Assembly: GCA_947627275.1 (NCBI GenBank)
Contig: CANQVK010000010.1
Location: 1-64,000 of the forward strand
Reading direction: 5' to 3'
DNA length: 64,000 nucleotides
Source: an uncultured Ruminococcus sp.
GTDB lineage: Bacteria > Bacillota > Clostridia > Oscillospirales > Ruminococcaceae
In this document: positions 1,919 to 18,485 of the stretch, piece by piece
Layout: each line of letters begins with the position of its first letter
Numbering within the stretch: the stretch's first letter is position 1
Program-made: the position numbers and the translations under genes
Notes under the pieces: generated by a model
What the model saw: only the letters and a program-made list of their open reading frames with translations
The model's database searches: none
Told to the model about the DNA's origin: nothing

Positions 1919-1972
1919 TGGTGCGGATAACAGGAGTTGAACCTGCACCGAGTTGCCCCGACTGGCACCTGA
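1919..1972 (-). pseudogene. 3' half of split tRNA-Leu(CAG)
   Basis: Read on the minus strand it starts in the anticodon loop (TCAGGT), then gives the 3' anticodon stem GCCAG, a variable arm, a T arm with TTCAACT loop, the acceptor strand TATCCGC and an encoded CCA. There is no 5' half next to it. That half lies 16.5 kb away at 18447-18485 and pairs with this one in the acceptor stem (GCGGATA with TATCCGC, 7 of 7) and the anticodon stem (CTGGC with GCCAG, 5 of 5). Insertion of the element separated them. Confidence 0.92.
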
Positions 1973-1982
1973 GAGTAACGTC
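1967..1982. other. Left attachment junction (attL)
   Basis: The core ACCTGA (1967-1972) lies in the tRNA anticodon loop. The tRNA stem CTGGC is on the left and the element arm GAGTAACGTC (1973-1982) on the right. That arm is nearly the inverse of the arm at the other end. Confidence 0.75.
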
Positions 1983-2110
1983 ATGATAGTGTAATTATTT
2001 CCAATGGACATTATTCTCATGCAGAAATATAGAAATATTATTTTTGGCTAACTCTACATAAGGTAAGGATTGTAAAAATACCAACATACGATCTCAAAAC
2101 ATAGTTTCTT

Positions 2111-3868
2111 TTATAAGATATCTATAGTTTTTAATTTATCTATAAACTGTGTGTAAGTAAAGATATTATTTTTGCCCACCAATGTTTCTAAGAAATTTCG
2201 AAATGTGAAATCAATAGGGAGTGTTACAAACATTATTAACCTCTTTTTAGGTCTTGAACAGCAAACATAAAATAAGTTTCGATTCCTTTCAAAAGACGCC
2301 TCTTTTCCTTTTGGAATTGAGACTGTTTCATTCATCATTGGTGCATAGGTTTCAAATTGGTATTGGTTCCAACCTTTGCTTATGACAAAAATCACATTAT
2401 CATACTCTTCACCTTTTACACCATGTTCAGTAGAAAATTCTGCCTCAGGATATAGAAAATCCATAGCTGACAGAAATTGTTCATATTCCAACTCCAAAAA
2501 GTCTTGAATGGTAGTATCCGAACTATATATTGTTTCCGGAGCACTATGGTACAGTTTTAAATATCCCTCAAGCTGCGGTGGGATGGGAATAAGCTTAGAG
2601 TTAATAACTGAATTAAGAACGTCAATCGTCTTTTTAGTGCGAACTATTTTTAATGATTGTTCTAATTCTTTCCACTTTGTTTTTTCTGCTTTCTTGGTGA
2701 TAGGATATCTTTTAATTCCAAGTGTATCAAAAAGTAACTGCATATTCAACGTGCAAAGTGCCTCATATATTGGCTCTACAGTATTCATAAAGAACAGAAG
2801 AAACGGATCTTGTTTATCTCGTAATCCGTCTGCTAAGATACTTAATAGGCGTTCATAGCCTTGCTGTGTTGCGAGTACCTTATGAGTAATCATCAGCACT
2901 TTCAGTTTTTCGATAGAGGGAGTGGTTGTTTTGATACCGTTGACTAACCCATTTAACCTATTTCTTAATTCTTGTGCAGGCAGTTCATTTTTAAAATTTC
3001 GATCAGTACGCCGTTCTCCAGAGTAGTCATCACAAGTAACAACAATCACTTCACCCTCAAAATCGTCTATCGCAGACTTTTGAGGCAATTCAGGTCTAAT
3101 ATCATTCAGAAATTTTACAATCCTTGGTGCTGATCTAAAGTTTGAGCCTTTTTTAATTTCCTTAATATTATTGTGCTCTACTACCCCACACGCCTTATTT
3201 GATTGATAAATTGTCTGCCAAGCATCTCCGAAAAAACCGAATTGTGGACCTTTTTTTGTGGCAATAAAATAGTCAATAAAGCGTTCAATAATCGGCTTAT
3301 ATGAGTCTTGGTACTCATCAATTAAAATTAATGGGTATTTATCTGTGAATATACGTCGGAATTTTGCATTATCCAAAAGTGAACAAAAAAGTTTAAGCAC
3401 ATCATCATGATACAAATACTGTATTCCATTTTCTTTATATCTGTGTCCTAAAGTATATCTAACTTCGGACACTTTAAAGAAATCTCCCTCATCCGGTTGA
3501 AATGACTTATCTTTTTGAATAATATTCAGCAATGTGCTTTGGTATTGCTTGATTGCGTTCCACGCAAACGAGTGAATTGTCGAAGGAAGTATAAATGAAT
3601 CATTTGATAACCGTTCTGCGATTACATTCACGGCAGCATTTGTGTAGGTAATACAAATAACATTCTGCTTTTTTCGATTATATTCATTCCATTTGTTTGC
3701 TTGTACCCATTCAATTACTTTGTTTAGTGAATAAGTTTTTCCCGAACCGGCTCCGGCTTCAACACGAAAACTAAGACCTTCTTGTAGAGCAGCAATAATT
3801 TGTGTTTCTACTTTATCAGCTTCTGCTTTTGCAATATCATAGTTGGTATCTTTGTGTTTGTCACTCAT
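2111..3868 (-). CDS. UvrD/Rep-like SF1 helicase, GajB-like partner of OLD nuclease
   Basis: Protein of 585 residues. Seen: Walker A AGAGSGKTYS at about residues 38-47, Walker B with LILIDEYQDS, motif III FGFFGDAWQTIYQ, motif IV around NFRSAPRIVKF, then EHGVKGEEYDNVIFV and the final motif RNLFYVCCSRPKKRL. These are the SF1A helicase motifs. A frame upstream is open to 3946, but the start at 3868 has AGGAGG 9 bases before it. The gene follows the OLD gene by 13 bases. Family knowledge: a class 2 OLD nuclease followed by a UvrD-like helicase is the Gabija anti-phage layout (GajA-GajB), in which the helicase-like protein supports the nuclease. Assignment to Gabija is by layout and motifs only. 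Confidence 0.82.
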   Translation of the reverse strand: MSDKHKDTNYDIAKAEADKVETQIIAALQEGLSFRVEAGAGSGKTYSLNKVIEWVQANKWNEYNRKKQNVICITYTNAAVNVIAERLSNDSFILPSTIHSFAWNAIKQYQSTLLNIIQKDKSFQPDEGDFFKVSEVRYTLGHRYKENGIQYLYHDDVLKLFCSLLDNAKFRRIFTDKYPLILIDEYQDSYKPIIERFIDYFIATKKGPQFGFFGDAWQTIYQSNKACGVVEHNNIKEIKKGSNFRSAPRIVKFLNDIRPELPQKSAIDDFEGEVIVVTCDDYSGERRTDRNFKNELPAQELRNRLNGLVNGIKTTTPSIEKLKVLMITHKVLATQQGYERLLSILADGLRDKQDPFLLFFMNTVEPIYEALCTLNMQLLFDTLGIKRYPITKKAEKTKWKELEQSLKIVRTKKTIDVLNSVINSKLIPIPPQLEGYLKLYHSAPETIYSSDTTIQDFLELEYEQFLSAMDFLYPEAEFSTEHGVKGEEYDNVIFVISKGWNQYQFETYAPMMNETVSIPKGKEASFERNRNLFYVCCSRPKKRLIMFVTLPIDFTFRNFLETLVGKNNIFTYTQFIDKLKTIDIL

Positions 3869-3881
3869 AGTTTTCGCCTCC

Positions 3882-5852
3882 TCATTCAAGAACTTTCTGC
3901 TCGTTAAGCCATACCAAACCAGCTTTAATGTACTGCGGAATCTCATAGTCTGGTTTATCGAAAATTAGCCTTAATGCAAAATCAGTTTTGCTTTTTTCTT
4001 TGAATGTCAACGATTCTTCGGTGACAGGTTCAGCTAATCCGTAATAGTTTCTATTTGTATTTATAATAGATTCTTCCAAAGATCTACCACACAATCCGTT
4101 TTCCTTCGTTTGAAATTCAATGTGACATTTTCCTCTTGTTTTTTGACTTTCATTCAACGCAATTATTTCGGACAAAGCAATTGGTGTATCATCATCCTCA
4201 GATAGTGATTTAATTTGTCTCATCCACCATTTTATTGTAGAATTGGATGTTGTTTTTCCTTTACTTACGACTGCTTTTGTTCGCCCATCTTCCATTGAAT
4301 CAATGTCTGTAAGAATCAGACAGGGAATACCAAGGAAATTTGAAAATGGAATAAATTTATAGGCGTATGCACCTCCTATTTCGATTAATGCGTAATACTG
4401 TGCCGGTAACTTATATGTTACAGAATTAAACAATCCCGCCTTATCACATTTAGTAATCATATCAGGCAGTAGTAATCTCTCAGAGGCTCCTTCTATAAAT
4501 ATGATTTTGTCAGCAAAGAACAAGTCACAGCGACTAATAGTTAGATACTTCTTGATGAAATCCATGTTATTGGCATTGCTCTGGGCGAACAAGTGTAAAT
4601 TTTTATAAATTACCCCAGCAGTTGTTTTCTGTGCATATCGTATTTTTGAAAAGTCCATTGTATTTGCAATATGAGCAGAGTGAGAAGTCAAAAAAGTCTG
4701 AATATGCACATTGGAAATCTTATTCAAAAAAGTTTCAAGATAATCTGCAAACGCATGTTGCATTTGAGGATGCATATGTGATTCAGGCTCTTCAATGAAA
4801 AGTAATGGAATACATGCTTCCCCGTGTTTATCCACATCTTTTGCAAATGCAGCAAGAAGAAACTCCATCTTAATTAAATTCTTATAACCGAGTCCATTAT
4901 GCGTGCTTGGCAAACTTTCTTTCGATGCTCCAGAAGTATAAGATAGTTTTGTTTGGTTTTTAATTTGATCATCAATTTTTAAGTGCGTCGTTACACCAAG
5001 TTGCAATTCTTCTGCATTGGGATATCCAAACCCGATCGCATTACTAACTACAGAACTAAGGATCTCATTACTATGTTTTTGAACATCTTTATTTGCATCC
5101 TCAATAATTTGGCGCAACTTCATAATCTCTGTTGCCACTTTTGGATCAAGTTCTTCTTCATTTACATCAAAAAAGCTAGAAATCAATTCACTAAGAGTGT
5201 TCTTACTTTGAGTGCCATCTTCGCCAAGTATACGTTCCGCAGGAATTGAGTAGAATGGAAATAATTCAGATAATTCATTTGAACTTTTTACTTGCCTATC
5301 TTTCATGTTCTTAGGATTTACTGCATAAATTGTCAAACCAAATATCTTGGTAAAACTGTTGACAACAATGTCATGTATTTCTGTAGTATCAGGCATCCAA
5401 ACATTATTTTTATAAAAAGTCTTCTCTAATAAATTCCATAAGGCTTTTTCTTCTATTTTTAGCTTGTATTCTACACGTATCAAAGCCTCTGTTGTATCTA
5501 AATCGACATCAATTATGAAAGGAGAAAGTGCTCCCAGATTATCTTCGAGGTCATCAGAAGAATAATCAACTATAAATTCTATAGAAATTATTGGCAGCTT
5601 TTCACAAAGTTCAGAAAATGAAATTTCTTTTGCCATATATTTTGCAACTAAATTATGTAGTTCTTGGCGCTTTTCTAATGGATAATCATCATAAGAAAAA
5701 TTTTTGCCATTCAACACCGTACTGACGCAATCAATACATGATGTTTTCGCAGTGTTATTGCGTCCAACAATAAGCGTTGTCTCCTTGTGAACATCCAGTT
5801 CAGCATCAATAAGTAGCCTGTAGTTATGGATTCTAATTTTTGATAGTTGCAT
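3882..5852 (-). CDS. OLD-family ATPase-TOPRIM nuclease, GajA-like
   Basis: Protein of 656 residues. The N-terminal ABC-type ATPase has a Walker A at residues 30-38 (GRNNTAKTS, where the usual G before the lysine is A), Walker B LLFIEEPE near 350-357 and the H-loop SHSAHI near 390. The C-terminal TOPRIM domain has IEGASERLLL near 453, an acidic EIGG strand near 491 and LTDIDS near 514-519. This order defines OLD nucleases, which cut DNA and are held in check by nucleotide binding in Gabija. The length exceeds that of typical GajA (somewhat under 600), with an insert between Walker A and Walker B. GGAGGAG precedes the ATG. A palindrome lies just upstream (5877-5898). Confidence 0.83.
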   Translation of the reverse strand: MQLSKIRIHNYRLLIDAELDVHKETTLIVGRNNTAKTSCIDCVSTVLNGKNFSYDDYPLEKRQELHNLVAKYMAKEISFSELCEKLPIISIEFIVDYSSDDLEDNLGALSPFIIDVDLDTTEALIRVEYKLKIEEKALWNLLEKTFYKNNVWMPDTTEIHDIVVNSFTKIFGLTIYAVNPKNMKDRQVKSSNELSELFPFYSIPAERILGEDGTQSKNTLSELISSFFDVNEEELDPKVATEIMKLRQIIEDANKDVQKHSNEILSSVVSNAIGFGYPNAEELQLGVTTHLKIDDQIKNQTKLSYTSGASKESLPSTHNGLGYKNLIKMEFLLAAFAKDVDKHGEACIPLLFIEEPESHMHPQMQHAFADYLETFLNKISNVHIQTFLTSHSAHIANTMDFSKIRYAQKTTAGVIYKNLHLFAQSNANNMDFIKKYLTISRCDLFFADKIIFIEGASERLLLPDMITKCDKAGLFNSVTYKLPAQYYALIEIGGAYAYKFIPFSNFLGIPCLILTDIDSMEDGRTKAVVSKGKTTSNSTIKWWMRQIKSLSEDDDTPIALSEIIALNESQKTRGKCHIEFQTKENGLCGRSLEESIINTNRNYYGLAEPVTEESLTFKEKSKTDFALRLIFDKPDYEIPQYIKAGLVWLNEQKVLE

Positions 5853-6135: not shown

Positions 6136-7203
6136 TTATACGGTTTGCAATGTTTTAATCGTGTGCAAGCTTCGGCTCTTTATTCTACTGATATACTCCG
6201 ACATATGCTCATAATCAGGCGTCCCGTCAACCTTTGCAGGCAATTTGATTACAAAATTCCGTTTGATGTGAGCATTCAACTCTTTTATAAATGCTCTGTA
6301 ATTATTTTGGCTTTCCTTGAATATTGCAGTTGCAATAAATTGCTTTGCCTCAAAAGATATATCTTTCTTTGGTATCAGTACTACAACATTTTGACTTGTG
6401 TAAAAAGGTTCTTCTTGGATGAAGCAAGAACCTAAGTACGCGCCACCCAAAGCTAAGGTCAAATTGCCCGGTTTATAAGACTTTAATCCCTGTATTTCGT
6501 TGACTTTTTGGGTTATGCCGTTGTTAAAATTGGATCGACCAACAAAATTTATTTTAGGTGCAGTGGTCTCCATCTTTGCCTTGTCCAATTTTGTACCAGA
6601 GTCAATCTCGAAAATATCATATAAATGAAAGTTTTGCCAGTTTTCTAAATTGAATTTTTGACAAATAGCGGACCGTTTTGCTGACTGCAATTTAGTCAGC
6701 GAAGCACTGACTGCAATTTCCCGATTTTTCATATATTCTTCCATATATGAAAAATCGGGGTTGCCATCTTTATCAGCTGGCAACGTTATTATGTCCTTTT
6801 GAATTGATTTCGAAGATATAGAATCTCCCCAATTGTAAGTATGCCCTATGCTTGCCTTTAATGCCGTAATTAAAAACAACTGTACTTTCTCTGTACGATG
6901 ATTGTTATCTTTTAGATATAAAACAAGGTTATGACTATCATTTGAATAGAAGTCCTTTTTTTGATATGTGATAGTCAAAGTTTTACCAGCAATCATAATG
7001 CAATTCCCTGATTCTTTTAGATTCTCATTATAGGTGATATATGTATAAACACCATTGTTTTCATTGCTTGCTGTAACATAGGGAGTTTCGCCACTATCTT
7101 CTTCAATTTCATTTTTCAATATACTATGCGTATTTTTTACTTCAAACAAATCAATAACCTTAAACTGTTTCCAATCGGATGTTTCAATTTTGCTCACAAT
7201 CAT
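6136..7203 (-). CDS. Restriction-modification specificity subunit (two target-recognition domains)
   Basis: Protein of 355 residues built of two similar halves. Each half begins with a W-x-x-F-x-x-x-D-L/I-F motif (near residues 11 and 191) and ends with an I-x-L-P-A-x-x-D-G-x-P-D motif followed by a tyrosine-rich helix (near 140-155 and 325-340). This is the layout of HsdS and BcgIB subunits, which read a bipartite DNA target and guide a methyltransferase. The gene overlaps the methyltransferase-nuclease gene by 20 bases, so the two are translated together. No HsdR gene lies nearby, which favours a BcgI-like (type IIB/IIG) system over classical type I. A leftover fragment of another specificity gene follows at 5954-6112. 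Confidence 0.82.
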   Translation of the reverse strand: MIVSKIETSDWKQFKVIDLFEVKNTHSILKNEIEEDSGETPYVTASNENNGVYTYITYNENLKESGNCIMIAGKTLTITYQKKDFYSNDSHNLVLYLKDNNHRTEKVQLFLITALKASIGHTYNWGDSISSKSIQKDIITLPADKDGNPDFSYMEEYMKNREIAVSASLTKLQSAKRSAICQKFNLENWQNFHLYDIFEIDSGTKLDKAKMETTAPKINFVGRSNFNNGITQKVNEIQGLKSYKPGNLTLALGGAYLGSCFIQEEPFYTSQNVVVLIPKKDISFEAKQFIATAIFKESQNNYRAFIKELNAHIKRNFVIKLPAKVDGTPDYEHMSEYISRIKSRSLHTIKTLQTV

Positions 7204-9058
7204 TCACCTCTCTGCTATCCAAGGAAATGCACACTTTTTTGTCGGTGGATGTAATCTCACTACTATACATTACTTTTTTTACCAATGCATCACTAAACTC
7301 TTTCACATCAACGCCCTGTTTAAACATCAAATAATCCATCATTGTTTTGGTGAAATCTTCTTCGCTGATTTCAAATTCCTTTTCGGGAATCTGATAGCTT
7401 AAATGCTCGGAAGGCTTGATCCATTTTATTGTATCATCGCCAGATTGCTTGCGGATGATTTCAACCCATCTGTCCTCAATGCTCTGCCATCTATCCTTAA
7501 TGTCCTGTCTACCTTGATTTTTAACGGTTTCCAATCCGTCATCTTTAATAAAACAAGTGAAGATTTCTTTATTGTTCTGTGGAACACCTGCCTCAAAAAT
7601 AAATATGGAAGTCGTTACACCCTCGGAAAATATCTTTTCCGGCAACTTAATAATTTTCTCTAAGGTGCTATGCTTGAGCAGTTTAGCTCCGTTATCCTTT
7701 TCGAGTTTTTTATCAGGAAGAATAAAGGCACATTTTGTATGCGGCGGTACATTCAAAAGAACATTGTTTACAATTGTTAAACAACCATATTTGCGTTCAA
7801 AAGGTGGATTCATTAAAACTTTTGTTATAGGGTTACTCAATAAAATCAAATTGCCGTTTTTATCTTTTTGGAATTCACCTTTTTTGTTGGTTTTATAGCT
7901 TTTGGATTTTATCCAATTGCAAGCCTCTTGTGTGCGCGTGTCCAACTGTTCCAAATTGGTTTTTCCGTCTTTATGGATAAGCATATTCGCACAGGCAAGA
8001 GCAAATATTTCCCTGTCAAACTCAATGCCAAACAACTGTGTTTCTTTGATTTCAGGTGTTTTCTTGGCATTTATGCCGCCCGCTGCCTTAATCATATTGC
8101 ACATAGACTTTACAAGGAATGCACCGGAACCGCAAGCAGCATCTAGTATTCTGTCGTTTTGATCTATATCAATAAGACGATACATAAACGAGGTAATGTG
8201 ATCAGGGGTAAACACTTGTCCGCTTTCAGATTTCTTTTTATAACGGTTAAATTCATTAAAGAATATACCCATTACATCTTCGCCGTTCCAATAGTCAGAG
8301 TTGACGCAATCGGAAATTTCGGAAACCCATTTAATAAAATTGTCAATCGCTTCTTGGTTGGAAGCGTTATTCATTTTAATTTCGGCGTAAACATCAATCA
8401 ATAAATCCAGCTTTAGATTTTGTTTTTTGCTTTCCTCTAAAGATTTACCCAATGTACTTAAAATGGAGTTTTTCATCAAGGAAAAATCCATACCTTTGAT
8501 TAAAATGGCTTCGTATCTTTTTGCTACCAAAGCGCAAGCGGTAAAAATCATTCTGTGATACAAATTTTTAATACCAAACTCTGTGTGCAAGCAATCGTTA
8601 ATTTTCTTTGTAAGATTATAAATACGTTGTTTATCTATGGCATTCTTGTTAAAAAGAGCAATATAGTATGTCTTGTGTTGGAGAGTTGTTGAAATCTCAG
8701 TATCTTCAATATTATTCTTAAAAGTACGAGTATCTATTCCGTTATAAAGAATACCAACTACTTGCTTATATTTAGTAGCGGCAATATCGCAATTTTTAAT
8801 AAGTTCATCTGCCCACTTTTGAAGAGAAATATCTTCGGATTCTGATTTTGTTTCAAGAATTATGGCTGGCATATTATGATCATCAGGCAGATACCAACCG
8901 TCAGGTTTGTCATTTATACCTTTGAATCCTAATTGATTAAAGGTTGTAATTTGTCCAGTACCTTGTTGTATTTTTGCTTCTATGGCATCAAAACCCAATA
9001 TAATTTTAGCACTATCTCTAACTTGATCTTCCGTGCGGCAAGTAGATTTATTTATCAT
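7184..9058 (-). CDS. Fused nuclease-N6-adenine methyltransferase (BcgIA-like)
   Basis: Protein of 624 residues. The N-terminal part has a PD...ExK nuclease pattern: D53 in KPDGW, then E69-x-K71 in ILETKSE. A helical HsdM-type linker follows, then the methyltransferase core with FTPDHITSFM (about 283), SAM-binding motif I DAACGSGAFL (about 306-315) and catalytic NPPF (417-420). One chain thus both cuts and methylates, and the neighbouring subunit gives specificity. That is the BcgI architecture, and no separate restriction gene is present. AGGAGG lies 7 bases before the ATG. The operon begins downstream of the broken AbiE toxin gene and may share its transcript. The target sequence cannot be told from the protein. 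Confidence 0.84.
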   Translation of the reverse strand: MINKSTCRTEDQVRDSAKIILGFDAIEAKIQQGTGQITTFNQLGFKGINDKPDGWYLPDDHNMPAIILETKSESEDISLQKWADELIKNCDIAATKYKQVVGILYNGIDTRTFKNNIEDTEISTTLQHKTYYIALFNKNAIDKQRIYNLTKKINDCLHTEFGIKNLYHRMIFTACALVAKRYEAILIKGMDFSLMKNSILSTLGKSLEESKKQNLKLDLLIDVYAEIKMNNASNQEAIDNFIKWVSEISDCVNSDYWNGEDVMGIFFNEFNRYKKKSESGQVFTPDHITSFMYRLIDIDQNDRILDAACGSGAFLVKSMCNMIKAAGGINAKKTPEIKETQLFGIEFDREIFALACANMLIHKDGKTNLEQLDTRTQEACNWIKSKSYKTNKKGEFQKDKNGNLILLSNPITKVLMNPPFERKYGCLTIVNNVLLNVPPHTKCAFILPDKKLEKDNGAKLLKHSTLEKIIKLPEKIFSEGVTTSIFIFEAGVPQNNKEIFTCFIKDDGLETVKNQGRQDIKDRWQSIEDRWVEIIRKQSGDDTIKWIKPSEHLSYQIPEKEFEISEEDFTKTMMDYLMFKQGVDVKEFSDALVKKVMYSSEITSTDKKVCISLDSREVNDCEQN

Positions 9059-9074: not shown

Positions 9075-9970
9075 TCACATCCACTCTGTATTTTGAGCTG
9101 ACCATTTTTCAACATAATCCATCTTTTTTATCGCCAATGCAAACGGTTTGGCAAGAAAGACTTTTATCGTTTTCAACACTGTGCTGAAATCATCGGTTTT
9201 AGTATCAATCTTTCGACAAAACGCTTTCCATTTCTTTTGCATTGCTTCATCACTGTCAAAAGCCATAACCTGTTCAAACTGCTCTACTGTAAAGGCGTGT
9301 CCACGATTTTCGAAAGTTTTTCTTAGTGCCTCCGTAAGCGTTGCTTCGTCAAAATCAACTTATATGCAAGATAGTAAATATCGTAGTAATCCTTCATTCA
9401 ACTGGAAAACTCCATAAGACTAAGGATATCGTCAATTTTTTCAGCAATCGTTGTTTCGAGAGAATAGGTATTTACCGTCGGAGCAGTAAAATCATCAAGC
9501 TGTGTTGGGATTTTCCACTTTTCCTGTTTTGGCACAATGACATCGCCCACACCGAAATCAATGCTGAACGGCGTTTTCGTGTTCTTGATTCGTACTACGA
9601 GAGAATCGCCGATGCCAGCGTATTTCTTTGCAACGGCAATAGGCGTAATATCCTTGATTTCAAAGGTAATAAAATCATTGCCGGTAGGCGTGTTGATGAT
9701 TTCTTCCAGCACAGGCTTCAACTGTTCGGGTGTATTGGGTACTTTCCAAAGAAGAAAATATACATCCACTGTTACACGGCTGTCAAAGTCAGTAACTGAA
9801 TATATAAACAGACCGCCTTTGAGTACAAGATTCTCAGCATATTTAGAATGTTCCAAACGCCGTAGAAACTCTTCCTGACAGAAAAGCTACAAACAAAGCT
9901 GTTAGCTCCGTCCGCTTTCTTTCGCCTTATTTTTCAATTTCGCAAGTACAGATGCTGCAATATCAGCCAT
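9075..9970 (-). pseudogene. Broken AbiEii nucleotidyltransferase toxin
   Basis: From an ATG at 9970, overlapping the abiEi stop by 8 bases, one can read MADIAASVLAKLKNKAKESG followed by in-frame TAA and TAG codons. The frame then continues through LVLKGGLFIY and SRVTVDVYFLL to a third stop before MKDYYDIYYLA. About 10 codons later a 1-base loss shifts the frame, which runs on to QNTEWM at 9075. Joined, the pieces give a full AbiEii-like protein. The nucleotidyltransferase D-x-D is also changed (DVY). With three nonsense codons, one frameshift and a damaged active site, the toxin is dead. Confidence 0.88.
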
Positions 9971-10980: not shown

Positions 10981-11718
10981 TCAGGAAAGATGTTCCTTCA
11001 GCTTTTTCAAAGCCGCCTTAATGCCCTTTTCAACTGTTGCTGTACCAACGCAGAACTCCTCGCCGATTTGTGCAAATGTATGCGGTTGACAGCCAATTCC
11101 GTAGTACATTCGTATATATTCAGTATGCCGAGGATTGAGAATTTCATCAAGTTTATCTGTCAGCTCTTCAGCAATTTGTTTTTGTTCATTCTCAATCACA
11201 ATTTCTTCTGGATTCAAAATGTCAGACAGCAATTTTTCGTCCAGTTTTTTATCATGAATAAAATCATTACTATCAAGCATTGAACGGTACTCGTCAATGC
11301 TTGTTTTTCTTTTTTGGCTTAAAATAAAAAGTTCTGTTGCCTTGTCAGTAGAAATATTCATTGTATTGCTTATGAGGACAATCTGCTCATCGACTGAAAA
11401 TTGACTGTTTTCAGCACAGATTTTTCTTACCTTGCCAATCTGCTTGTTAAGGTGCTCAGAAATGCTGACTGTGTCAAGGAAAAAACGGATTTCCTCAAGC
11501 ATTTTCAATCTGACTCCGCTGTAAGCATATGTCCAAAACGGTACCCCTTTGCTTTCATTAAAGTTTGCAGATTGCTCGATCAGCGAAATATAGCCGGCTT
11601 TCTGCAAATCCTCAAAGGCTTCAAATGGCAGGCTATATGTCTTTGAAAGCGATTCTGCAAGCCTGTACACATTATCATAATTTTCATGGATAAGCCGTTC
11701 ATTTTTGTTCTTCTTCAT
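10981..11718 (-). CDS. Element-encoded sigma-70 family factor
   Basis: Protein of 245 residues. Region 2 is seen near residues 35-80 (FEDLQKAGYISLIEQ, then VPFWTYAYSGVRLKMLEEIR), a region 3-like helical stretch lies in the middle, and region 4 near 190-243 (NPRHTEYIRMYYG, then the helix-turn-helix FAQIGEEFCVGTATVEKGIKAALKKL). This is the SigF/FliA-like small sigma layout, without region 1. Its start overlaps the stop of the preceding gene by ATGA, so translation is coupled. A dedicated sigma factor would let the element switch on its own genes; its target promoters are unknown. The 3' end abuts the repeat-rich stretch. Confidence 0.8.
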   Translation of the reverse strand: MKKNKNERLIHENYDNVYRLAESLSKTYSLPFEAFEDLQKAGYISLIEQSANFNESKGVPFWTYAYSGVRLKMLEEIRFFLDTVSISEHLNKQIGKVRKICAENSQFSVDEQIVLISNTMNISTDKATELFILSQKRKTSIDEYRSMLDSNDFIHDKKLDEKLLSDILNPEEIVIENEQKQIAEELTDKLDEILNPRHTEYIRMYYGIGCQPHTFAQIGEEFCVGTATVEKGIKAALKKLKEHLS

Positions 11719-12866
11719 TTTGCCCCTCCGATGTTTAAGGTCTTGTATAGTGAGTTCTTTTCAAATAACTGTTCAAGTGTTTTGTAGGTTATTAAATCAC
11801 CATTTGCATCGTATTTTCCACGGATAGCCATATCACGCATAGTTTCAAGATAATGCAGGATTTTATCATACTCCTCATCTGAAATATTTCCACGAAATTT
11901 CTGCTGATAATATTTATTCCTCGCCTTATTATAGGTCTGAACGATAGGATCGTTTTCCGCCTTTTCCTTGTGCTTGTTTTTAGCGCCTATTTGACGGCAG
12001 GTTCTGTTTGAATTTTCGGGAGATTTTTCATTGCAGTAAAATGTTTTATAGCTGTCAGTTGAAAGGAAAAAACGTCCGCAGTTATGACAGCGAAACGGCG
12101 CTCTGTCATACTGAACAGCTTTGAAAAAGTCGTATTGGATAACGCTCTGCGCATTATGAAATTCACAGGTTTCCACCATGATCAGTTTTTCCTTATCGTT
12201 CGGATCAATCATTCCTGAAACGCCAAGATTTACGTCCATAGTTTTATCAATATTGGATTTATCGTAGTACGGAACAGTTGCCCGTAGATTTTGTGAAAGT
12301 GAGGAGTATTCGTTAAAAGCCCACCACGCCGCAGTGTAATTGTCCTCGTCACGCTTTTTTACCTGTGAGAAATACATATCAGATATTTCTGCAATACAGC
12401 ACGACATAATATAAAGTCCAATTCCATAACCCGAAAACAGCTTTTTGTACTGCTTATACTCCGAATATTCGTCGGAAGTAACATCATACAGTCTGCCATA
12501 GAATTCACTGCATTTTATTCTTTCGGCACGCTGTTTTTCCTTCTCCAAATTAATACTGACATAGCGATATGGTGGCAAACCAACTGCTATTTTTTCAATT
12601 TCTAAAATGCGGTTCACGAACTCTGTTATCGTATGTTCATTTTTTACCGCCATGCTGTTATCTGCAAATCTCGCAAAGGAAACTGTTAAATCGAAAATTT
12701 TCCCCATATCCTCAGCCTTCATATTCAGCAGATCCGTAGTAATTTCGCCGACATTCAGACTGTATTTGGTCGTGAAAATTCTGTTTTTATGGATAAGAAA
12801 ATAGAACCTGAAAAAGCTGTCATCAGGCATATCATAGTTGGAGTTGTTCGGAATTGTGTTGTTCAT
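11715..12866 (-). CDS. Zinc-finger protein, DUF6076-like
   Basis: Protein of 383 residues. The N-terminal two thirds are helical and unrecognised. A metal-binding cluster follows with C260, C263, C278 and C290 (FRCHNCGRFF ... FYCNE ... TCRQIG), then a basic, helix-rich tail. The cluster resembles that of CGNR and DUF6076 proteins, which often occur on clostridial mobile elements. It is the first gene of a two-gene operon with the sigma factor, which it overlaps by 4 bases, so it could act as that factor's partner or anti-factor; that is inference. AAGGAG lies 7 bases before the ATG. Confidence 0.65.
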   Translation of the reverse strand: MNNTIPNNSNYDMPDDSFFRFYFLIHKNRIFTTKYSLNVGEITTDLLNMKAEDMGKIFDLTVSFARFADNSMAVKNEHTITEFVNRILEIEKIAVGLPPYRYVSINLEKEKQRAERIKCSEFYGRLYDVTSDEYSEYKQYKKLFSGYGIGLYIMSCCIAEISDMYFSQVKKRDEDNYTAAWWAFNEYSSLSQNLRATVPYYDKSNIDKTMDVNLGVSGMIDPNDKEKLIMVETCEFHNAQSVIQYDFFKAVQYDRAPFRCHNCGRFFLSTDSYKTFYCNEKSPENSNRTCRQIGAKNKHKEKAENDPIVQTYNKARNKYYQQKFRGNISDEEYDKILHYLETMRDMAIRGKYDANGDLITYKTLEQLFEKNSLYKTLNIGGAK

Positions 12867-12918: not shown

Positions 12919-13036
12919 GCTTGTCAAGTCCCATTCTGTAGTGAATGGAGTTTTTGCTTGTAATGCAATTTGATAAATTACAAAAAATTCTCCCAATAAA
13001 TATATGGGAGCAAAAAATGATTGGAGAGTGATAAGA

Positions 13037-14818
13037 ATGTCAGAATTATTGGCAGAAGAAAAAATTGAAGATGCTATGGATGAAACAGTCTATGATTCGC
13101 CTTATGCTGTGAAAAGCGGCTGTCTGTACGAAATGGTTCAAATCAAAGAACAGATTGTACCCATAAAACTTGCAGACTTTGTACCTACGCTTACAACAGA
13201 GATAACCCGCGATGACGGTGTGGAGCAGACCAAGAAATTTAAAGTATCTGCGATACACAAATCGGGAATTACTTTGCCGGAGGTAACAGTTTCAGCAGAT
13301 GAAATGCAGTCAATGAAATGGATGCTGAACCGCTGGGGAGCATACGGAGCTGCGCAGCCAAAACAAAATGTTCTCAGCAAGATTTGTCATGCTATACTGA
13401 GTACCAAAACGGCAGTTGAGTTTAAAACTGTCTACTTGCAGACAGGCTGGAAGAAAATCAACGGCGAGTATGTGTTTCTTATGCCGAACGCTCAACGACA
13501 AATCAGCGTTGAGCTGCAAGGAAAACTGAAAAATTATTCTTTCAGTAACAAGTGTTCAAAAGATGACGTAATTTATTTGACTGCTATGCTTGAAAATAGT
13601 TTTGCTCCGCAGAATGTTATGTTGCCACTGCTTGCGGTGACTTTTCTGTGTCCGCTGAATCATTTCCTGAAAATCGCAGGATATGAACCTAAGTTTGTAA
13701 CTGCTCTCATCGGTAAGACGGGTTCAAGGAAGTCAACACTTGCGGCACTGTTTCTTTCGTTCTTTGGAAAGTTCAGTGCAAGCGATTTGCCGATGTCTTT
13801 TCATGATACAGCAAACAGCATTCTGAGCAACGTTTACTATCTTAAAGATGTTCTGACTTGCATTGATGATTTTCATCCTAGCGGAATGTTTCATGAGCAG
13901 GAGATGAAAAGTATTGCTCAGAACATTTCACGATACTACGGCGATAGAATAGGACGTGCAAGGCTGAATTCAAAATCAGAATTACAGTCAAGCCGTCCAC
14001 CGACAGGAAATGCAATCATCACAGCGGAGTATGCTCCTGAGATTTCTGTTTCAGGTTCGGCAAGATACTTCAACATTGAATTGAATGAGAATGATGTTCA
14101 GATTGATGAACTGTCAGAGTATCAGCAACTTGTAAACAGCGGTACACTTTGTGGAATCATGCAGTTGTACATTGATTGGATAAAAGATGTGTATCTTGAT
14201 GATGAAAGTGTATTTGCAAAAATGCTTGAAGATATGTTTTTGAAGTATCGCTCTGATTTTATCAATGTGCTATGCGAATCAAAAGTAAAATTTCACAATA
14301 GGACTCCCGATATGCTTGCACATCTGAAAATTGGATTTTCATTTCTGCTTGTGTTCTTAAATGAACATGAGCAAGTTACAAAGTCAGAACTTGATAAATT
14401 TGAAAAAGTTTTTGATGAAATAATTCTGAAAGCTGTTTCGGACACTGCTGAAGTCATCGAACTTGAAAATCCCACAACAAAATTTTGTGAAAAGCTGCGC
14501 AGTCTGCTTGATAGCGGTCGATGCTATGTTGAAATCAGAGGTGCTGATAGAGTGCCACATCAGAAAAATTGTTTGGGATTGCAGGATGATAATTACTACT
14601 ATCTTTTTGCGGACGCTGCACATTCGGAAGTGCGAAAACTGTGTGCAGAACAGGGTGAGCATTTTAGTATCAGCAAAAACGAATTGCTCCGACAGTTAAG
14701 AAAAGATGGGATTCTGATTTCTCGGACAAACAGAAATACGATTTCAATTCGTGATAATTCAAATACAGTGGTTAACGTGATCATGCTGAATAAGGCAAAG
14801 CTGAAAATTTCAGAATAG
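13037..14818 (+). CDS. P-loop ATPase/helicase, DUF927-like
   Basis: Protein of 593 residues. A Walker A (GKTGSRKST) lies near residues 226-234 and a Walker B (VLTCIDDFHP) near 272-281, with an arginine-rich segment (RYYGDRIGRARL) after it. This pattern fits DUF927-type superfamily 3 helicases, which act in replication of plasmids, phages and integrated elements. The C-terminal 110 residues look like a winged-helix segment (ISKNELLRQLRKDGIL). The start at 13037 is preferred over the one 11 codons earlier because GGAGAG precedes it. No primase or replication initiator is adjacent, so replication of the excised circle is plausible but unproven. The gene is divergent from the sigma operon. Confidence 0.7.
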   Translation: MSELLAEEKIEDAMDETVYDSPYAVKSGCLYEMVQIKEQIVPIKLADFVPTLTTEITRDDGVEQTKKFKVSAIHKSGITLPEVTVSADEMQSMKWMLNRWGAYGAAQPKQNVLSKICHAILSTKTAVEFKTVYLQTGWKKINGEYVFLMPNAQRQISVELQGKLKNYSFSNKCSKDDVIYLTAMLENSFAPQNVMLPLLAVTFLCPLNHFLKIAGYEPKFVTALIGKTGSRKSTLAALFLSFFGKFSASDLPMSFHDTANSILSNVYYLKDVLTCIDDFHPSGMFHEQEMKSIAQNISRYYGDRIGRARLNSKSELQSSRPPTGNAIITAEYAPEISVSGSARYFNIELNENDVQIDELSEYQQLVNSGTLCGIMQLYIDWIKDVYLDDESVFAKMLEDMFLKYRSDFINVLCESKVKFHNRTPDMLAHLKIGFSFLLVFLNEHEQVTKSELDKFEKVFDEIILKAVSDTAEVIELENPTTKFCEKLRSLLDSGRCYVEIRGADRVPHQKNCLGLQDDNYYYLFADAAHSEVRKLCAEQGEHFSISKNELLRQLRKDGILISRTNRNTISIRDNSNTVVNVIMLNKAKLKISE

Positions 14819-15080: not shown

Positions 15081-15132
15081 AAAAGTACCGGAATTACGCC
15101 GTTTCCGCAAGTGGTTTGTGCAATTTTTAGTA

Positions 15133-15226
15133 GTCGCATCATGGAGTCAAAAATTGAAAATCGGTCGCATTCAGGAGTCGTAATTGCGAAATAGTGGCGA
15201 TAATTGGCGTATTTATAGGAGTCGCA
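15133..15226 (+). promoter_or_regulatory. Direct repeats upstream of ribbon-helix-helix gene
   Basis: GTCGCATCATGGAGTC (15133-15148) and GTCGCATTCAGGAGTC (15164-15179) are 31 bases apart, about three helix turns. A third partial copy GGAGTCGCA lies at 15218-15226. Ribbon-helix-helix proteins usually bind such repeats at their own promoters. Confidence 0.5.
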
Positions 15227-15246
15227 AAAAGAAAAGGAGTAAATGT

Positions 15247-15642
15247 ATGGCAAAAGAAAAAATGGCTGTATATTTTCAGCCTGAAACAATTAAGAAAATC
15301 GAACAGGAATATCGAGAGGACAATTGTGCCTCGAAAACAGAATTTATCGAAAAAGCCGTCAAGTTTTACATCGGCTATCTTCGTCAGCAGGAGGAGGTGA
15401 ATTACCTCTCCCCAATGATAACCGAGACGGTGAAAGCGCAGATCAAAGGTACAGAACAACGGCTTGCAAGATTGATGTTCAAGGTCGCAGTTGAGCTTGG
15501 AAAGCTGTCTCATATGACTGCTGCGATGAATGATGTTGATGATGAAACCTTGAAAAGTTTACACGCTATGTGTGTCACAGAAGTCCGTAAAATCAACGGT
15601 ATCATTGACTACGAAGATGCTGTTTATTATCAGCAAAACTAA
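15247..15642 (+). CDS. Ribbon-helix-helix DNA-binding protein of the recombinase module
   Basis: Protein of 131 residues. The start MAKEKMAVYFQPETIKKIEQ is a beta strand followed by a helix, with a second helix around TEFIEKAVKFYIGYL, the ribbon-helix-helix fold of CopG/MobC-like proteins. The C-terminal half is helical (LARLMFKVAVELGKLSHM) and is what survives in the relic at 63-280. AAGGAG precedes the ATG. It heads the block ribbon-helix-helix, 60-residue protein, recombinase. It likely binds the direct repeats upstream and controls the module, or serves as an accessory protein in transfer or excision; no relaxase gene is present. Confidence 0.7.
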   Translation: MAKEKMAVYFQPETIKKIEQEYREDNCASKTEFIEKAVKFYIGYLRQQEEVNYLSPMITETVKAQIKGTEQRLARLMFKVAVELGKLSHMTAAMNDVDDETLKSLHAMCVTEVRKINGIIDYEDAVYYQQN

Positions 15643-15729: not shown

Positions 15730-15912
15730 ATGCCAAGACCGAGAGCGATGCCCAAAATCAATTCAGTTGTTGTCACATACAATGGCAACAAAAAATCCTT
15801 TGAAATTTTTATGGAGTCCATGATTCTGGACTATTTGAATTCATGTAGTATAGCCAAATCTGCGCCTCCCAAATTTGTTGGTAAGGTAGAAAAAATTACG
15901 AAGTCGGCGTGA
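15730..15912 (+). CDS. Small conserved protein upstream of recombinase
   Basis: A 60-residue basic protein of unknown family, nearly identical to the relic-copy protein at 355-537. AAGGAGG lies about 9 bases before the ATG. It stands 96 bases before the recombinase start, with a hairpin between. Conservation of the frame in both copies supports a real gene. Position suggests a role in the recombination module, such as a directionality factor, but nothing in the sequence proves it. Confidence 0.65.
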   Translation: MPRPRAMPKINSVVVTYNGNKKSFEIFMESMILDYLNSCSIAKSAPPKFVGKVEKITKSA

Positions 15913-15946
15913 TTGCTGGACTTTCGGAAACGGTTGTGATATGGTT

Positions 15947-15974: not shown

Positions 15975-16008
15975 TGCCAACTACACAAATTCAAAGGAGG
16001 TTGAAATT

Positions 16009-17592
16009 ATGAGAGCGTGGCTGTACTACAGACTTTCCCGTGACGAGGACGAGGAAATGAACAGCTTACAGAATCAGCGGCAGATACTTGTTGAATACGC
16101 TGAACAGAACGGTTACGAAATCATTGGCGAGAGTTTTGACGATAATGTTTCGGGTATGACGTTCAACAGAAAGGGCTTGGGAGAACTTGAAATTGCTGTT
16201 GATGAGGGTAAAATTGATGTTGTTCTAGTCAAAGATTTAAGCCGGCTGGGACGTCACAGAACGCAGACAGAACTGTTCATAGACCACTTACGACAGAACA
16301 ATGTCAGAGTATATTCCGTCACAGAGGGCATTGATTCAACTAACGAAAACGATGATCTGATGATTGGATTCAAGCAGATTTTCAATGATTTTTATGCTAA
16401 AGACATCAGTAAAAAGGTCAAGGCTGGAATGCGTCAGAAACAGAAAAGTAAAGGTCTGGTTCTCACGCTGCCGCTTGGTTATTACCTTGATCGCAACACA
16501 AACGAAGTAAAAATTGATGAGGATACGGCGTGGATTGTGCGTGAAGTGTTCAGTCTTTATGTTATCGGTTATGGACTGACTACCATTGCTAAAAAGATGA
16601 ATGCTGACGGTATCAGATCGCCCGATTACTACTTCAATCGGAAACTTGCCGACTGGAAACCTGATATTTCCAAGAAATACTTATGGGTACAAACCGCCGT
16701 AAAGCGCATTCTGACTAACGAACTTTACATTGGTACGATGGTAAATCACAAGACTGTGACAAGTAAGATTTACAAAACTAAAACGTTCATACCGCAGGAA
16801 GAACAGTATCGGCACGAAAACTTCTGCGAACCTATCATAGACGAAACAACTTGGAAACAGGCTCAATTTTTACTGGAACAGCGTTCTAAAATCAATCCAC
16901 GTTCGCAAAACGGTCGTAAACTTCATCGCTATGCAGGACTGATAAAATGTGCTGATTGCGGTTCGGGATTTACTGCACGAACACGAAAATGGCGTGGAAA
17001 CGAATACGTTGACTACACTTGCAATAGCTGTCACAGGTACGGAAAGGAATACTGCACTCCACACACCATAAGAGAGAATCAGCTTGACGAGCTTGTGGAA
17101 AATGAGGTGAAATCACTTAGAGATAGCATCTTGGCGGAGAGCGATAAGTACGATAAAATTGTCAGAGATTGGCTCAGAAAGAAGCCTTTGTATGAGCAAC
17201 AGATTCAGCAGAATAATGATAAAATTCTATCGCTCAGACAGCAGATTGAGGACTTGATTATTGAACGCATCGGCGATCGTGAACACGCTTCAATCTATAA
17301 CAGTATGATCGCTAAGCGTGAGGAAGAAATAGCATCCCTTGAAAAAAAGATATCGGAGCTCAAAGAATATGACAAGGTCTGCAAGCAACGAAAAGAACAC
17401 CTCAAAAATACAACTCAGGTACTTGATGAAATCTTATCAGAGGGCAAAATTTCAGATGTGAATCTCAGAATGCTTGTTAATAAAATTTTGATTCATCAAA
17501 ATGAGGATAAAAGCCTTGATATCAAATTTGAGTTAAATGGAGATTTTAACAACACATCAAACACATCTATTGAATTGGAAAATCAGTTATAA
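16009..17592 (+). CDS. Large serine recombinase (site-specific integrase)
   Basis: Protein of 527 residues. The catalytic resolvase domain has Ser10 in YYRLSRDE and arginines 79 and 82 in KDLSRLGR. The recombinase domain follows (from about 150, PLGYYLDRNTNEVKIDE), then a zinc ribbon with C314, C317, C338 and C341 and a coiled coil at about 375-450. This is the complete layout of the large serine integrases of mobile clostridial elements. It is expected to join the element's attachment site to the chromosome. The borders of this element, with a short core and inverted arms, fit that mechanism. AAGGAGG precedes the ATG and a strong terminator follows. Confidence 0.93.
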   Translation: MRAWLYYRLSRDEDEEMNSLQNQRQILVEYAEQNGYEIIGESFDDNVSGMTFNRKGLGELEIAVDEGKIDVVLVKDLSRLGRHRTQTELFIDHLRQNNVRVYSVTEGIDSTNENDDLMIGFKQIFNDFYAKDISKKVKAGMRQKQKSKGLVLTLPLGYYLDRNTNEVKIDEDTAWIVREVFSLYVIGYGLTTIAKKMNADGIRSPDYYFNRKLADWKPDISKKYLWVQTAVKRILTNELYIGTMVNHKTVTSKIYKTKTFIPQEEQYRHENFCEPIIDETTWKQAQFLLEQRSKINPRSQNGRKLHRYAGLIKCADCGSGFTARTRKWRGNEYVDYTCNSCHRYGKEYCTPHTIRENQLDELVENEVKSLRDSILAESDKYDKIVRDWLRKKPLYEQQIQQNNDKILSLRQQIEDLIIERIGDREHASIYNSMIAKREEEIASLEKKISELKEYDKVCKQRKEHLKNTTQVLDEILSEGKISDVNLRMLVNKILIHQNEDKSLDIKFELNGDFNNTSNTSIELENQL

Positions 17593-17605
17593 ATTGCATA
17601 TTAAA

Positions 17606-17637
17606 GGCTGTAAGCTACCGTTGCTTACAGCCTTTTT
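17606..17637 (+). terminator. Terminator of recombinase gene
   Basis: GGCTGTAAGC pairs perfectly with GCTTACAGCC (17623-17632) across 7 bases, followed by TTTTT. Confidence 0.9.
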
Positions 17638-17644
17638 GAAATAA

Positions 17645-18154
17645 TTAATCTTTTTTCACAAACATAGTTTCATTAGCATGTTTCAACCTTTTATCTAAAA
17701 TTCTTTCAATCATTTCTTTCTCAAATTCTTCACAATGTAATTTTTCATAATTATTAAGTGTTTTTCTTTCTTCAAATTTTTTTATAAGAAGATTTAAAAG
17801 CCAAAGCAAAAAGATGAATATTATTATACCAGATAATAGTTTTCCTATTATTCCACTCATTTTATCTAAATCGTTATCTAAATTAAAGAGAATTGAAACA
17901 ATAGTAGACGTAATTATTCCAATTATTGCAGATGTAATTAAATCTTTAGATGTTGATGTATGAAAATCTATATCATTCAACCTTGAAACCAAAGCATCCG
18001 AAGCACCTGTAAAGTTATTATAATAATTTTCAATATAATTTTGAAATTTTATACGTTTATCTTCTAAAGATGTTTTTTCACCCTCATTTATTATCTCATT
18101 TGCTTTTACTTGAATGTCTTGTGTAATGATATTTTTATTTTGTTTTTTTGACAT
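17645..18154 (-). CDS. Two-helix membrane protein of unknown function
   Basis: Protein of 169 residues. A charged N-terminal region (about 1-70) is followed by two hydrophobic segments (about 73-92, SAIIGIITSTIVSILF, and about 104-124, LLSGIIIFIFLLWLLNLLI), then a charged helical tail. I do not recognise a family. It lies between the recombinase terminator and the element's tRNA-Leu, the same slot that the GNAT gene holds next to the relic recombinase, so this slot may take variable cargo. Low-GC codon use sets it apart from the housekeeping genes. Small two-helix proteins near defence genes can be membrane effectors, but nothing here proves that. Confidence 0.6.
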   Translation of the reverse strand: MSKKQNKNIITQDIQVKANEIINEGEKTSLEDKRIKFQNYIENYYNNFTGASDALVSRLNDIDFHTSTSKDLITSAIIGIITSTIVSILFNLDNDLDKMSGIIGKLLSGIIIFIFLLWLLNLLIKKFEERKTLNNYEKLHCEEFEKEMIERILDKRLKHANETMFVKKD

Positions 18155-18199
18155 CTTATTTTTAACCTATAGAAAGAAATTTTATTATTGATACAAATA

Positions 18200-18221
18200 A
18201 AGACCCGAAATTTCGAGCCTT
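18200..18221 (-). terminator. Terminator behind element tRNA-Leu
   Basis: On the minus strand, AAGGCTCG and CGGGTCTT pair (with G-U pairs) around AAATTT, 17 bases after the tRNA CCA, followed by a short T-rich stretch. Confidence 0.5.
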
Positions 18222-18237
18222 AACTTGTAATATTTTT

Positions 18238-18324
18238 TGGTGCAGATGAAGGGACTTGAACCCATACCTCCTTGCGAAGACTAGCACCTGAAGCTAGCGC
18301 GTCTGCCTATTCCGCCACACCTGC
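18238..18324 (-). tRNA. tRNA-Leu(CAG), intact copy carried by the element
   Basis: The acceptor stem is GCAGGTG with CATCTGC and CCA is encoded. The D arm follows GGCGGAATAGGCAGACGC, the anticodon stem is CTAGC/GCTAG around loop TTCAGGT (anticodon CAG), with a long class II variable arm (TCTTCGCAAGGAGG) and a T loop TTCAAGT. It differs from the split tRNA-Leu(CAG) in both stems but reads the same codon. It lies 122 bases inside the right junction, downstream of the captured promoter of the split gene, so it can be transcribed by read-through and restore CUG decoding. Its anticodon loop also holds the ACCTGA core, so it is a possible target for another element. Confidence 0.95.
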
Positions 18325-18332
18325 ATTATTAT

Positions 18333-18362
18333 GAATCTGAAATTTTTACTCGGCTCAGATTC
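18333..18362 (-). other. Hairpin between tRNA 5' half and element tRNA
   Basis: GAATCTGA (18333-18340) and TCAGATTC (18355-18362) form a perfect 8-bp stem. An alternative stem CTCGG/CCGAG overlaps it. On the transcript from the captured promoter it comes just before the element tRNA and could guide processing. Confidence 0.4.
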
Positions 18363-18435
18363 TTTGACCGAGATGGATTTTCACAAGTTGCTCCACAAAA
18401 TATGCTGAGATGAACAGCGAAACTATTTTTACACA

Positions 18436-18452
18436 GACGTAACGCTACCTGA
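18436..18452. other. Right attachment junction (attR)
   Basis: The element arm GACGTAACGCT (18436-18446) meets the core ACCTGA (18447-18452), followed by the tRNA stem. Put end to end with the left arm (1973-1982), the two arms are inverted copies matching at 8 of 10 positions around a 7-base centre, as expected of a serine integrase attP site. Confidence 0.75.
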
Positions 18453-18485
18453 AGCCAGCGCGTCTGCCTATTCCGCCATATCCGC
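18447..18485 (-). pseudogene. 5' half of split tRNA-Leu(CAG)
   Basis: Read on the minus strand it gives GCGGATA (acceptor), the D arm with GGCGGAATAGGCAGACGC, the anticodon stem CTGGC and the loop TTCAGGT, then leaves tRNA sequence at the element border. It matches the 3' half at 1919-1972 to complete a tRNA-Leu. It keeps a consensus promoter and is likely still transcribed as a half. Confidence 0.92.

What the first reader, a model, noticed from the sequence alone, without database searches (positions are those of the whole stretch)
1919..18485. A tRNA-Leu(CAG) gene cut in its anticodon loop by an element that brings its own tRNA-Leu(CAG)
Seen: two halves of one class II tRNA lie 16.5 kb apart, with perfect pairing in the acceptor stem (7 of 7) and anticodon stem (5 of 5). 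An intact tRNA-Leu with the same anticodon lies 122 bases inside the right end. tRNA genes are common targets, but elements normally rebuild the tRNA from the attachment site. Here the host gene is broken and a different, complete tRNA replaces it. This makes the element depend on and protect a codon: losing it imprecisely could cost CUG decoding, which resembles an addiction mechanism. I know of no exact precedent for this layout with a serine recombinase, but I could not search.
Basis: partly seen in the sequence, partly recalled or inferred. Interest (0 to 1): 0.88.

Follow-up and report, generated by a model that had tools for sequence, protein, structure and literature searches.

The report
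Mobile element that replaces its target tRNA
A mobile DNA element cuts a gut bacterium's leucine tRNA gene in two and supplies a complete substitute tRNA, which can itself be hit by the next such element, so half-tRNA scars pile up in a row like a record of past insertions.

Summary
A 16.48 kb element (window 1973-18452) splits tRNA-Leu(CAG) in its anticodon loop and carries an intact tRNA-Leu(CAG), the only CAG leucine tRNA found in the genome. The joined halves equal an unsplit tRNA in two relatives at the matching site. It is a family trait: 52 of 79 related recombinase loci have an intact tRNA-Leu (25 CAG, 27 UAG) downstream on the opposite strand. Both ends carry the same arm, so attP is an inverted repeat around a 2-bp core (tRNA U33-N34), as expected of a large serine recombinase. 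In the compact form seen here the replacement tRNA has no recognisable promoter and seems to borrow the host's; some relatives have one of their own. New elements insert into the previous element's tRNA, giving nested elements and arrays of up to four extra 5' half-tRNAs. The principle is known: 'tRNA-dependent lysogeny' (PMC10865867), in phages with tyrosine integrases. Not found in print in ten searches: the serine-recombinase version, the reuse of the replacement tRNA as target, and the scar arrays. New variant of a known kind. Expression, need and mobility are untested.

The parts
1919..1972 (-). 3' half of the split host tRNA-Leu(CAG), CCA end at 1919-1921, ending at the core GA (1971-1972)
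1971..1972 (.). left copy of the 2-bp crossover core (GA; tRNA U33-C34)
1973..1992 (.). left attP-type arm
2111..3946 (-). cargo: GajB-like UvrD helicase (Gabija)
   Evidence: PDLC00113, E 7.1e-206
3882..5852 (-). cargo: GajA-like ATPase-TOPRIM protein (Gabija)
   Evidence: PDLC00063, E 6.8e-209
6136..7203 (-). cargo: restriction-modification specificity subunit
7184..9058 (-). cargo: N6 DNA methyltransferase, type I or IIG-like
9398..9856 (-). cargo: short AbiEii-like protein (152 aa; matches positions 45-192 of a 294-position model, so probably incomplete)
9963..10568 (-). cargo: AbiEi-like protein
10981..11718 (-). cargo: sigma-70 family factor
11715..12866 (-). cargo: DUF6076 protein
13004..14818 (+). 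604-aa protein with a weak DUF927 match
15184..15642 (+). 152-aa protein upstream of the recombinase (found in 19 of 80 loci)
15730..15912 (+). 60-aa protein conserved just upstream of the recombinase (61 of 80 loci); candidate accessory or directionality factor (guess from position only)
   Evidence: AlphaFold confidence low
16009..17592 (+). large serine recombinase (Resolvase, Recombinase and Zn-ribbon domains)
17645..18154 (-). 169-aa protein, no family match
18202..18219 (-). terminator-like hairpin after the element tRNA, followed by a T-rich stretch
   Evidence: read from the sequence
18238..18324 (-). intact replacement tRNA-Leu(CAG) carried by the element
18325..18450 (-). leader between the outer half-tRNA and the element tRNA; best promoter-like match in its last 70 bases is 8 of 12
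18333..18372 (-). possible H-type pseudoknot in the leader
   Evidence: 0 of 40 shuffles reach the score; 2 of 100 do
18431..18450 (.). right attP-type arm
18451..18485 (-). 5' half of the split host tRNA-Leu(CAG), starting with the right copy of the core (18451-18452)
18499..18527 (-). promoter of the split host tRNA, TTGACA-17-TATAAT
   Evidence: 12 of 12
72..825 (+). relic of an older element of the same kind (end of the 152-aa gene, 60-aa gene, truncated recombinase), 86-96% identical to 15434-16201
18609..19079 (-). host CD1247-like gene that marks the chromosomal site
   Evidence: NF045650

Best explanation
The window holds an integrative element of a large-serine-recombinase family that targets the anticodon loop of tRNA-Leu(CAG) or tRNA-Leu(UAG). 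SHOWN by anatomy and unsplit relatives: recombination across a 2-bp core, U33-N34, splits the host tRNA, and the element carries its own tRNA-Leu with the same anticodon near its right end. INFERRED from promoter positions: in the compact form seen in the window the carried tRNA has a terminator-like hairpin but no recognisable promoter, so the host tRNA promoter would transcribe host 5' half, leader and element tRNA in one piece; some relatives have a promoter of their own instead. INFERRED, weak: the leader, which in many members can form a pseudoknot, keeps the upstream half from mispairing with the tRNA. SUPPORTED by nested elements and by arrays made of leaders of different lineages: the carried tRNA becomes the next target, older elements are lost, and each event can leave a 5' half plus leader as a scar. 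How older elements are lost is INFERRED (homologous recombination between tRNA halves, or recombination between unmatched att sites). Cargo is variable; here it includes anti-phage defence genes.
For: Intact tRNA-Leu downstream of the recombinase on the opposite strand in 52 of 79 loci, 25 CAG and 27 UAG; no tRNA in 0 of 20 distant recombinase loci. Recombinase tree: a group of 27 with 24 CAG and 3 unlabelled, a group of 27 with 20 UAG and 7 unlabelled, a mixed basal group of 10; the two large groups have support 89/97 and 92/95. Left arms (19) and right arms (55, of which 43 distinct) share one consensus; right cores GA in 27 of 27 CAG units and AA in 28 of 29 UAG units. Scars carry other bases at loop positions 35-38 than a tRNA would, while the core stays constant. 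Unsplit sites. Outermost units show a perfect TTGACA-17-TATAAT in 15 of 52 and at least 11 of 12 matches in 17 of 52, against 0 of 57 inner leaders with 11 or more. Of 53 loci with an intact tRNA, window included, 37 have at least one further 5' half close by. A 3' half followed by another element's left arm downstream of a recombinase: L086, L107, L127, L145; stacked elements in L269/L268; relic in the window. In arrays with two or more leaders, 21 of 34 leaders are closer to one in another genome than to any sibling. In the closed R. bicirculans 80/3 genome the one CAG tRNA-Leu found is the element's.
Against: 12 of 79 loci hold over 5 kb downstream and show no intact tRNA-Leu; 4 of them are explained by a further element, 8 are not. 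16 of 53 loci have no 5' half close by (L093, L113 and L123 show diverged ones by eye), and in 5 of these (L075, L078, L110, L111, L116) a perfect promoter stands directly before the intact tRNA, so a promoterless tRNA is not general; in SIG534 (L078) the 5' halves lie about 10 and 16 kb further out. 35 of 52 outermost units score below 11 of 12. In R. bicirculans the left 3' half pairs 6 of 7 with the nearest 5' half and 7 of 7 with the later ones. Only one 5' half stands right of the window element although a relic of an older element lies on its left, so scars can also be lost. In 15 of the 52 loci the tRNA lies more than 1 kb from the recombinase, up to 8 kb, where the link is weaker. Fold calculations do not show that the leader protects the tRNA: mean acceptor-stem probability over 35 loci 0.24 with leader, 0.14 without, 0.11 with shuffled leader, 0.95 for the tRNA alone; pseudoknots were not modelled. 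Of 46 distinct leaders 11 show no pseudoknot. Many genomes are MAGs.
Confidence: 0.84

Rival explanations
1. Ordinary tRNA-targeting island whose attP rebuilds the tRNA: the intact tRNA is the rebuilt host gene and the extra half is a direct-repeat remnant.
For: This is the usual outcome for tRNA-targeting integrases (as told in PMC10865867). In 5 of 10 loci tested the element's 3' side is identical to the left 3' half.
Against: In the window the intact tRNA is separated from the core by a 126-nt leader, and the matching arms meet at the outer half, not at the intact tRNA. The element tRNA and the host 3' half are different alleles, 0.72 identity.
Confidence: 0.06
2. The half-tRNA arrays arise by tandem duplication or slippage of one unit, not by serial insertion.
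For: Some siblings are identical (L084 units 1 and 2, L096 units 1 and 2) or 95% alike (L073 units 1 and 3); 13 of 34 leaders are not closer to another genome than to a sibling.
Against: 21 of 34 leaders are closer to one in another genome; in L103, L104, L106 and L135 siblings are 64-74% alike but match other genomes at 83-100%. Stacked elements are seen directly.
Confidence: 0.1
3. An addiction device: the main selected role of the carried tRNA is to punish loss of the element.
For: The element tRNA is the only CAG tRNA gene found; CTG is 22% of 855 leucine codons in 23 host ORFs of the window.
Against: Precise excision would restore the host tRNA. The genome also has a UAG tRNA-Leu, which might read CUG by wobble (general knowledge, untested).
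Confidence: 0.15
4. The carried tRNA serves chiefly against tRNA-cleaving defences or to supply codons, and the split host gene is incidental.
For: Such roles of phage tRNAs are discussed in PMC10865867.
Against: The anticodon of the carried tRNA follows the recombinase group and the core dinucleotide, and the tRNA lies within 1 kb of the recombinase in 37 of 52 loci.
Confidence: 0.06

Closest known systems
tRNA-dependent lysogeny of actinobacteriophages (Guerrero-Bustamante and Hatfull 2024, PMC10865867; abstract, passages and sections 6 and 11 seen)
   Different: There: temperate phages, tyrosine integrases, cores of 8-11 bp in the passages seen, and for Fionnbharth a phage tRNA with its own tested promoter. 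Here: serine recombinase, 2-bp core, no phage genes recognised, tRNA near the right end and in the compact form without a recognised promoter, and the carried tRNA reused as a target. In those passages I saw nothing on such reuse or on scar arrays.
Serine-recombinase integrative and mobilizable elements (review PMC5704250, passages seen)
   Same: Site-specific serine recombinases inserting inside a gene with very short direct repeats; Tn4451 recombines 2-bp identical sequences.
   [quoted passage not shown] Here the target is the only CAG tRNA-Leu gene found. No relaxase was recognised here.
Prophage Lj965 of Lactobacillus johnsonii (one sentence in the discussion of PMC10865867)
   Same: Fails to rebuild the tRNA at the junction and encodes a cognate tRNA.
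   Different: A prophage; the original papers were not seen.
SCC elements with Ccr recombinases (family matches; the rest recalled)
   Same: Serine recombinases; composite islands at one site (recalled).
   Different: Recombinase scores far below the curated cut-off (96.4 of 900 bits for CcrB); different target; no replacement tRNA known to me.

Membership tests
Large serine recombinase integrative element | Resolvase, Recombinase and Zn-ribbon domains | tested here: met
Large serine recombinase integrative element | 2-bp crossover core shared by attL and attR | tested here: met
   over the family; the window ends alone share 6 bp
Large serine recombinase integrative element | attP an imperfect inverted repeat around the core | tested here: met
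   19 left and 55 right arms share a consensus
Large serine recombinase integrative element | recombinase catalyses integration and excision | not testable with these tools
   needs circle PCR or an assay
tRNA-dependent lysogeny | tyrosine integrase | tested here: not met
   serine recombinase
tRNA-dependent lysogeny | insertion breaks a host tRNA without rebuilding it | tested here: met
[quoted passage not shown]
tRNA-dependent lysogeny | carried tRNA needed for viable integrants | not testable with these tools
   only copy number was examined
tRNA-dependent lysogeny | element is a temperate phage | tested here: inconclusive
   14 element proteins scanned with Pfam gave no phage structural family apart from a DUF4355 match below its cut-off; the viral contig scan found no relative by two peptide patterns
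ICE or IME | relaxase or conjugation genes | tested here: inconclusive
   none among 14 element proteins scanned with Pfam; shorter ORFs were not scanned
SCC element | Ccr recombinase above the curated score | tested here: not met

The most novel reading that the evidence does not exclude
A self-renewing target: a serine-recombinase element family has taken over tRNA-Leu(CAG) and tRNA-Leu(UAG) genes in many Ruminococcus. Newcomers insert into the tRNA supplied by a predecessor, use the host promoter through an RNA-structured leader, and leave half-tRNA scars, so the locus keeps a layered record of past invasions and the host's tRNA allele is repeatedly swapped by mobile DNA.
Probability: 0.68. 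Interest if true: 0.85.

Novelty: new variant of a known kind. Interest (0 to 1): 0.73.

Why it matters
It would extend tRNA-dependent integration from tyrosine-integrase phages to serine recombinases and to elements without recognised phage genes, and show how mobile DNA can come to own a core translation gene. The half-tRNA arrays offer a countable history of insertions at one site, and the recombinases are candidate 2-bp-core tools aimed at a tRNA anticodon loop. It also warns that tRNA annotation and phylogeny at this locus can follow the element and not the host.

Tried and rejected
Ordinary tRNA rebuilding was rejected for the window because the matching arms meet at the outer half, not at the intact tRNA. 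Simple tandem duplication was rejected as the general cause of the arrays, though identical siblings exist. Rfam at E up to 5 on seven loci (including L001, the right end of the window element) gave nothing above threshold but tRNAs, and nothing at the leader. That the leader rescues tRNA folding was tested and is not shown. A scan of viral contigs gave no relative. The structure of the 60-aa protein came out too uncertain to use (mean pLDDT 66). A search for a conserved left host neighbour failed: the candidate gene of G059 is in many copies, some broken, with a DUF6329 match, so no genome with both ancestral flanks and no element was found. A strict attP pattern scan of the window gave no match; in the integrated state attP is split. 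An allele table at the end used a wrong anchor and was discarded; one search replaces it.

Full report
OBSERVATION. The window has one intact tRNA, tRNA-Leu(cag), at 18238-18324 minus. A 3' half lies at 1919-1972 and a 5' half at 18451-18485, both with ACCTGA at the break. Joined, they are called tRNA-Leu(cag) and occur letter for letter, 87 bases, in G109 and G059, upstream of the same CD1247-like gene. G109 shows no halves; G059 has three 3' halves, one about 2 kb from its intact tRNA, so it is not a clean empty site. G080 has an unsplit tRNA of the other allele at the site. One search found the CD1247-like gene in 110 of 120 genomes; of the 30 loci it gave, read (the window included) have the recombinase beside a tRNA-Leu, 3 have an unsplit tRNA with no recombinase and no half close by, 2 have a tRNA with decayed remains near a contig end, and 21 have no tRNA-Leu.

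ELEMENT. From core to core the element is 16,480 bp. Its serine recombinase (16009-17592) has Resolvase, Recombinase and Zn-ribbon domains. Cargo includes GajA and GajB of Gabija, a DNA methyltransferase with a specificity subunit, and AbiE-like genes, of which the AbiEii part looks incomplete. A 60-aa protein just upstream of the recombinase has a match in 61 of 80 loci, 73 of which hold over 400 bases upstream. Other cargo varies: GajA has a match in 4 of 80 loci, two of them weak. Left of the split tRNA lies a relic of an older element of the same kind (72-825).

FAMILY. A scan of named genomes by two peptide patterns gave 79 loci; the viral contigs gave none. An intact tRNA-Leu lies downstream on the opposite strand in 52 of 79: 25 CAG and 27 UAG, 37 of them within 1 kb; no non-leucine tRNA lies within 1 kb downstream. 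Of the other 27, 15 hold under 1,700 bases downstream. Of the 12 that hold more, 4 show a 3' half followed by another element's end and 8 are unexplained. Of 20 loci of distant serine recombinases, none contains a tRNA. In the genus, 31 of 125 genomes have the recombinase at E 1e-120 or better. The tree of 67 rows, 3 of them outgroups, has a CAG group (24 CAG, 3 unlabelled), a UAG group (20 UAG, 7 unlabelled) and a mixed basal group of 10 (5 CAG, 2 UAG, 2 unlabelled, 1 unsure). The nearest row, L069, is titled Alistipes, but a contig of the same length is in G124, which is grouped in the window's genus, so the title is probably wrong.

ATTACHMENT SITES. Read outward from the core, 19 left arms and 55 right arms share one consensus, about GGGTAGCGTYACGACAGTG. 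attP is thus an inverted repeat around 2 bp. The core is GA in 27 of 27 CAG units and AA in 28 of 29 UAG units: in tRNA terms U33 and the wobble base 34. The bases on either side differ between left and right ends in many members, which puts the overlap at 2 bp.

PROMOTER AND LEADER. Right of the outer half in the window stands TTGACA-17-TATAAT. Over the family 15 of 52 outermost units have a perfect match and 17 of 52 at least 11 of 12, against 0 of 57 inner leaders (2 of 57 reach 10). But in 5 loci (L075, L078, L110, L111, L116) the perfect promoter stands directly before the intact tRNA and no half is close by, so there seem to be two forms: a compact one that borrows the promoter, and one with its own promoter, in some cases with cargo between tRNA and right end. 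A terminator-like hairpin follows the window element's tRNA (read from the sequence). Of 46 distinct leaders, 35 can form an H-type pseudoknot by my search and in 24 the best one ends 6-14 nt before the tRNA, against 3.2 expected from shuffles; in 15 of 46 at most 5 of 100 shuffles reach the score, in 11 there is none (first run). In the alignments the stems differ in sequence and keep pairing (judged by eye, no formal covariation test). A folding calculation did not show that the leader protects the tRNA.

SERIAL INSERTION. A 3' half with another element's left arm follows the recombinase in L086, L107, L127 and L145, in L145 behind a recombinase fragment; elements are stacked in R. flavefaciens SIG534; a relic lies in the window. 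Of 53 loci with an intact tRNA, 37 have at least one more 5' half close by and 16 do not. Arrays have up to four extra units, spaced about 108, 119 or 162 bases. In arrays with two or more leaders, 21 of 34 leaders are closer to one in another genome than to a sibling. The left 3' half pairs 7 of 7 in the acceptor stem with the nearest 5' half in 8 of 9 loci; R. bicirculans is the exception with 6 of 7 (the test allows G-U pairs and a few positions of slack, so it is a modest test). In 5 of 10 loci the element's 3' side is identical to the left half; in the window it is 0.72.

NEED FOR THE TRNA. The element's is the only CAG tRNA-Leu found in the window genome and in the closed R. bicirculans genome. 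In SIG534 the one CAG and the one UAG tRNA-Leu found both lie on contigs beside such elements. CTG is 22% of 855 leucine codons in 23 host ORFs. Need was not tested.

LITERATURE. Ten searches were made. PMC10865867 describes tRNA-dependent lysogeny with tyrosine integrases and a phage tRNA promoter (abstract, passages, sections 6 and 11). PMC5704250 says that site-specific serine-recombinase IMEs disrupt dispensable genes (passages). PMC9897764 treats tRNA fragments from integration in general (passages). The passages seen of PMC12429752 and PMC12924846 hold no case like this. In these searches I found no paper on a serine recombinase with a replacement tRNA; most subscription papers are not held.

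Noticed in passing
window 72-825: Relic of an older element of the same family, 86-96% identical to the live one's recombinase region.
   Followed up: partly
window 15730-15912 and 60 other loci: A conserved 60-aa protein without a Pfam match just upstream of the recombinase; candidate accessory or directionality factor.
   Followed up: partly
L263 and L264 (G059): Three 3' half-tRNAs with left-end arms, one about 2 kb from an intact tRNA that has no 5' scar: probably leftovers of several elements.
   Followed up: partly
L150 and L169: Decayed half-tRNA remains with another repeat-like sequence inside the leader.
   Followed up: no
L075, L078, L110, L111, L116: Intact tRNA with a perfect promoter directly upstream and no 5' half close by, a second form of the family.
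   Followed up: partly
L074 and L077: Shorter leaders (83-84 nt) without a detectable pseudoknot, in a regular array of four extra units in L077.
   Followed up: no
L095, second unit: A GA core inside a UAG array, the only such unit of 29.
   Followed up: no
L223 1845-2831 and 39 of 125 genus genomes: A gene with a DUF6329 match, in several copies in some genomes and partly broken; near a 3' half in G059 and Marseille-P6503.
   Followed up: partly
L073 (R. bicirculans 80/3): The left 3' half fits the later scars better than the nearest one; possible gene conversion.
   Followed up: partly
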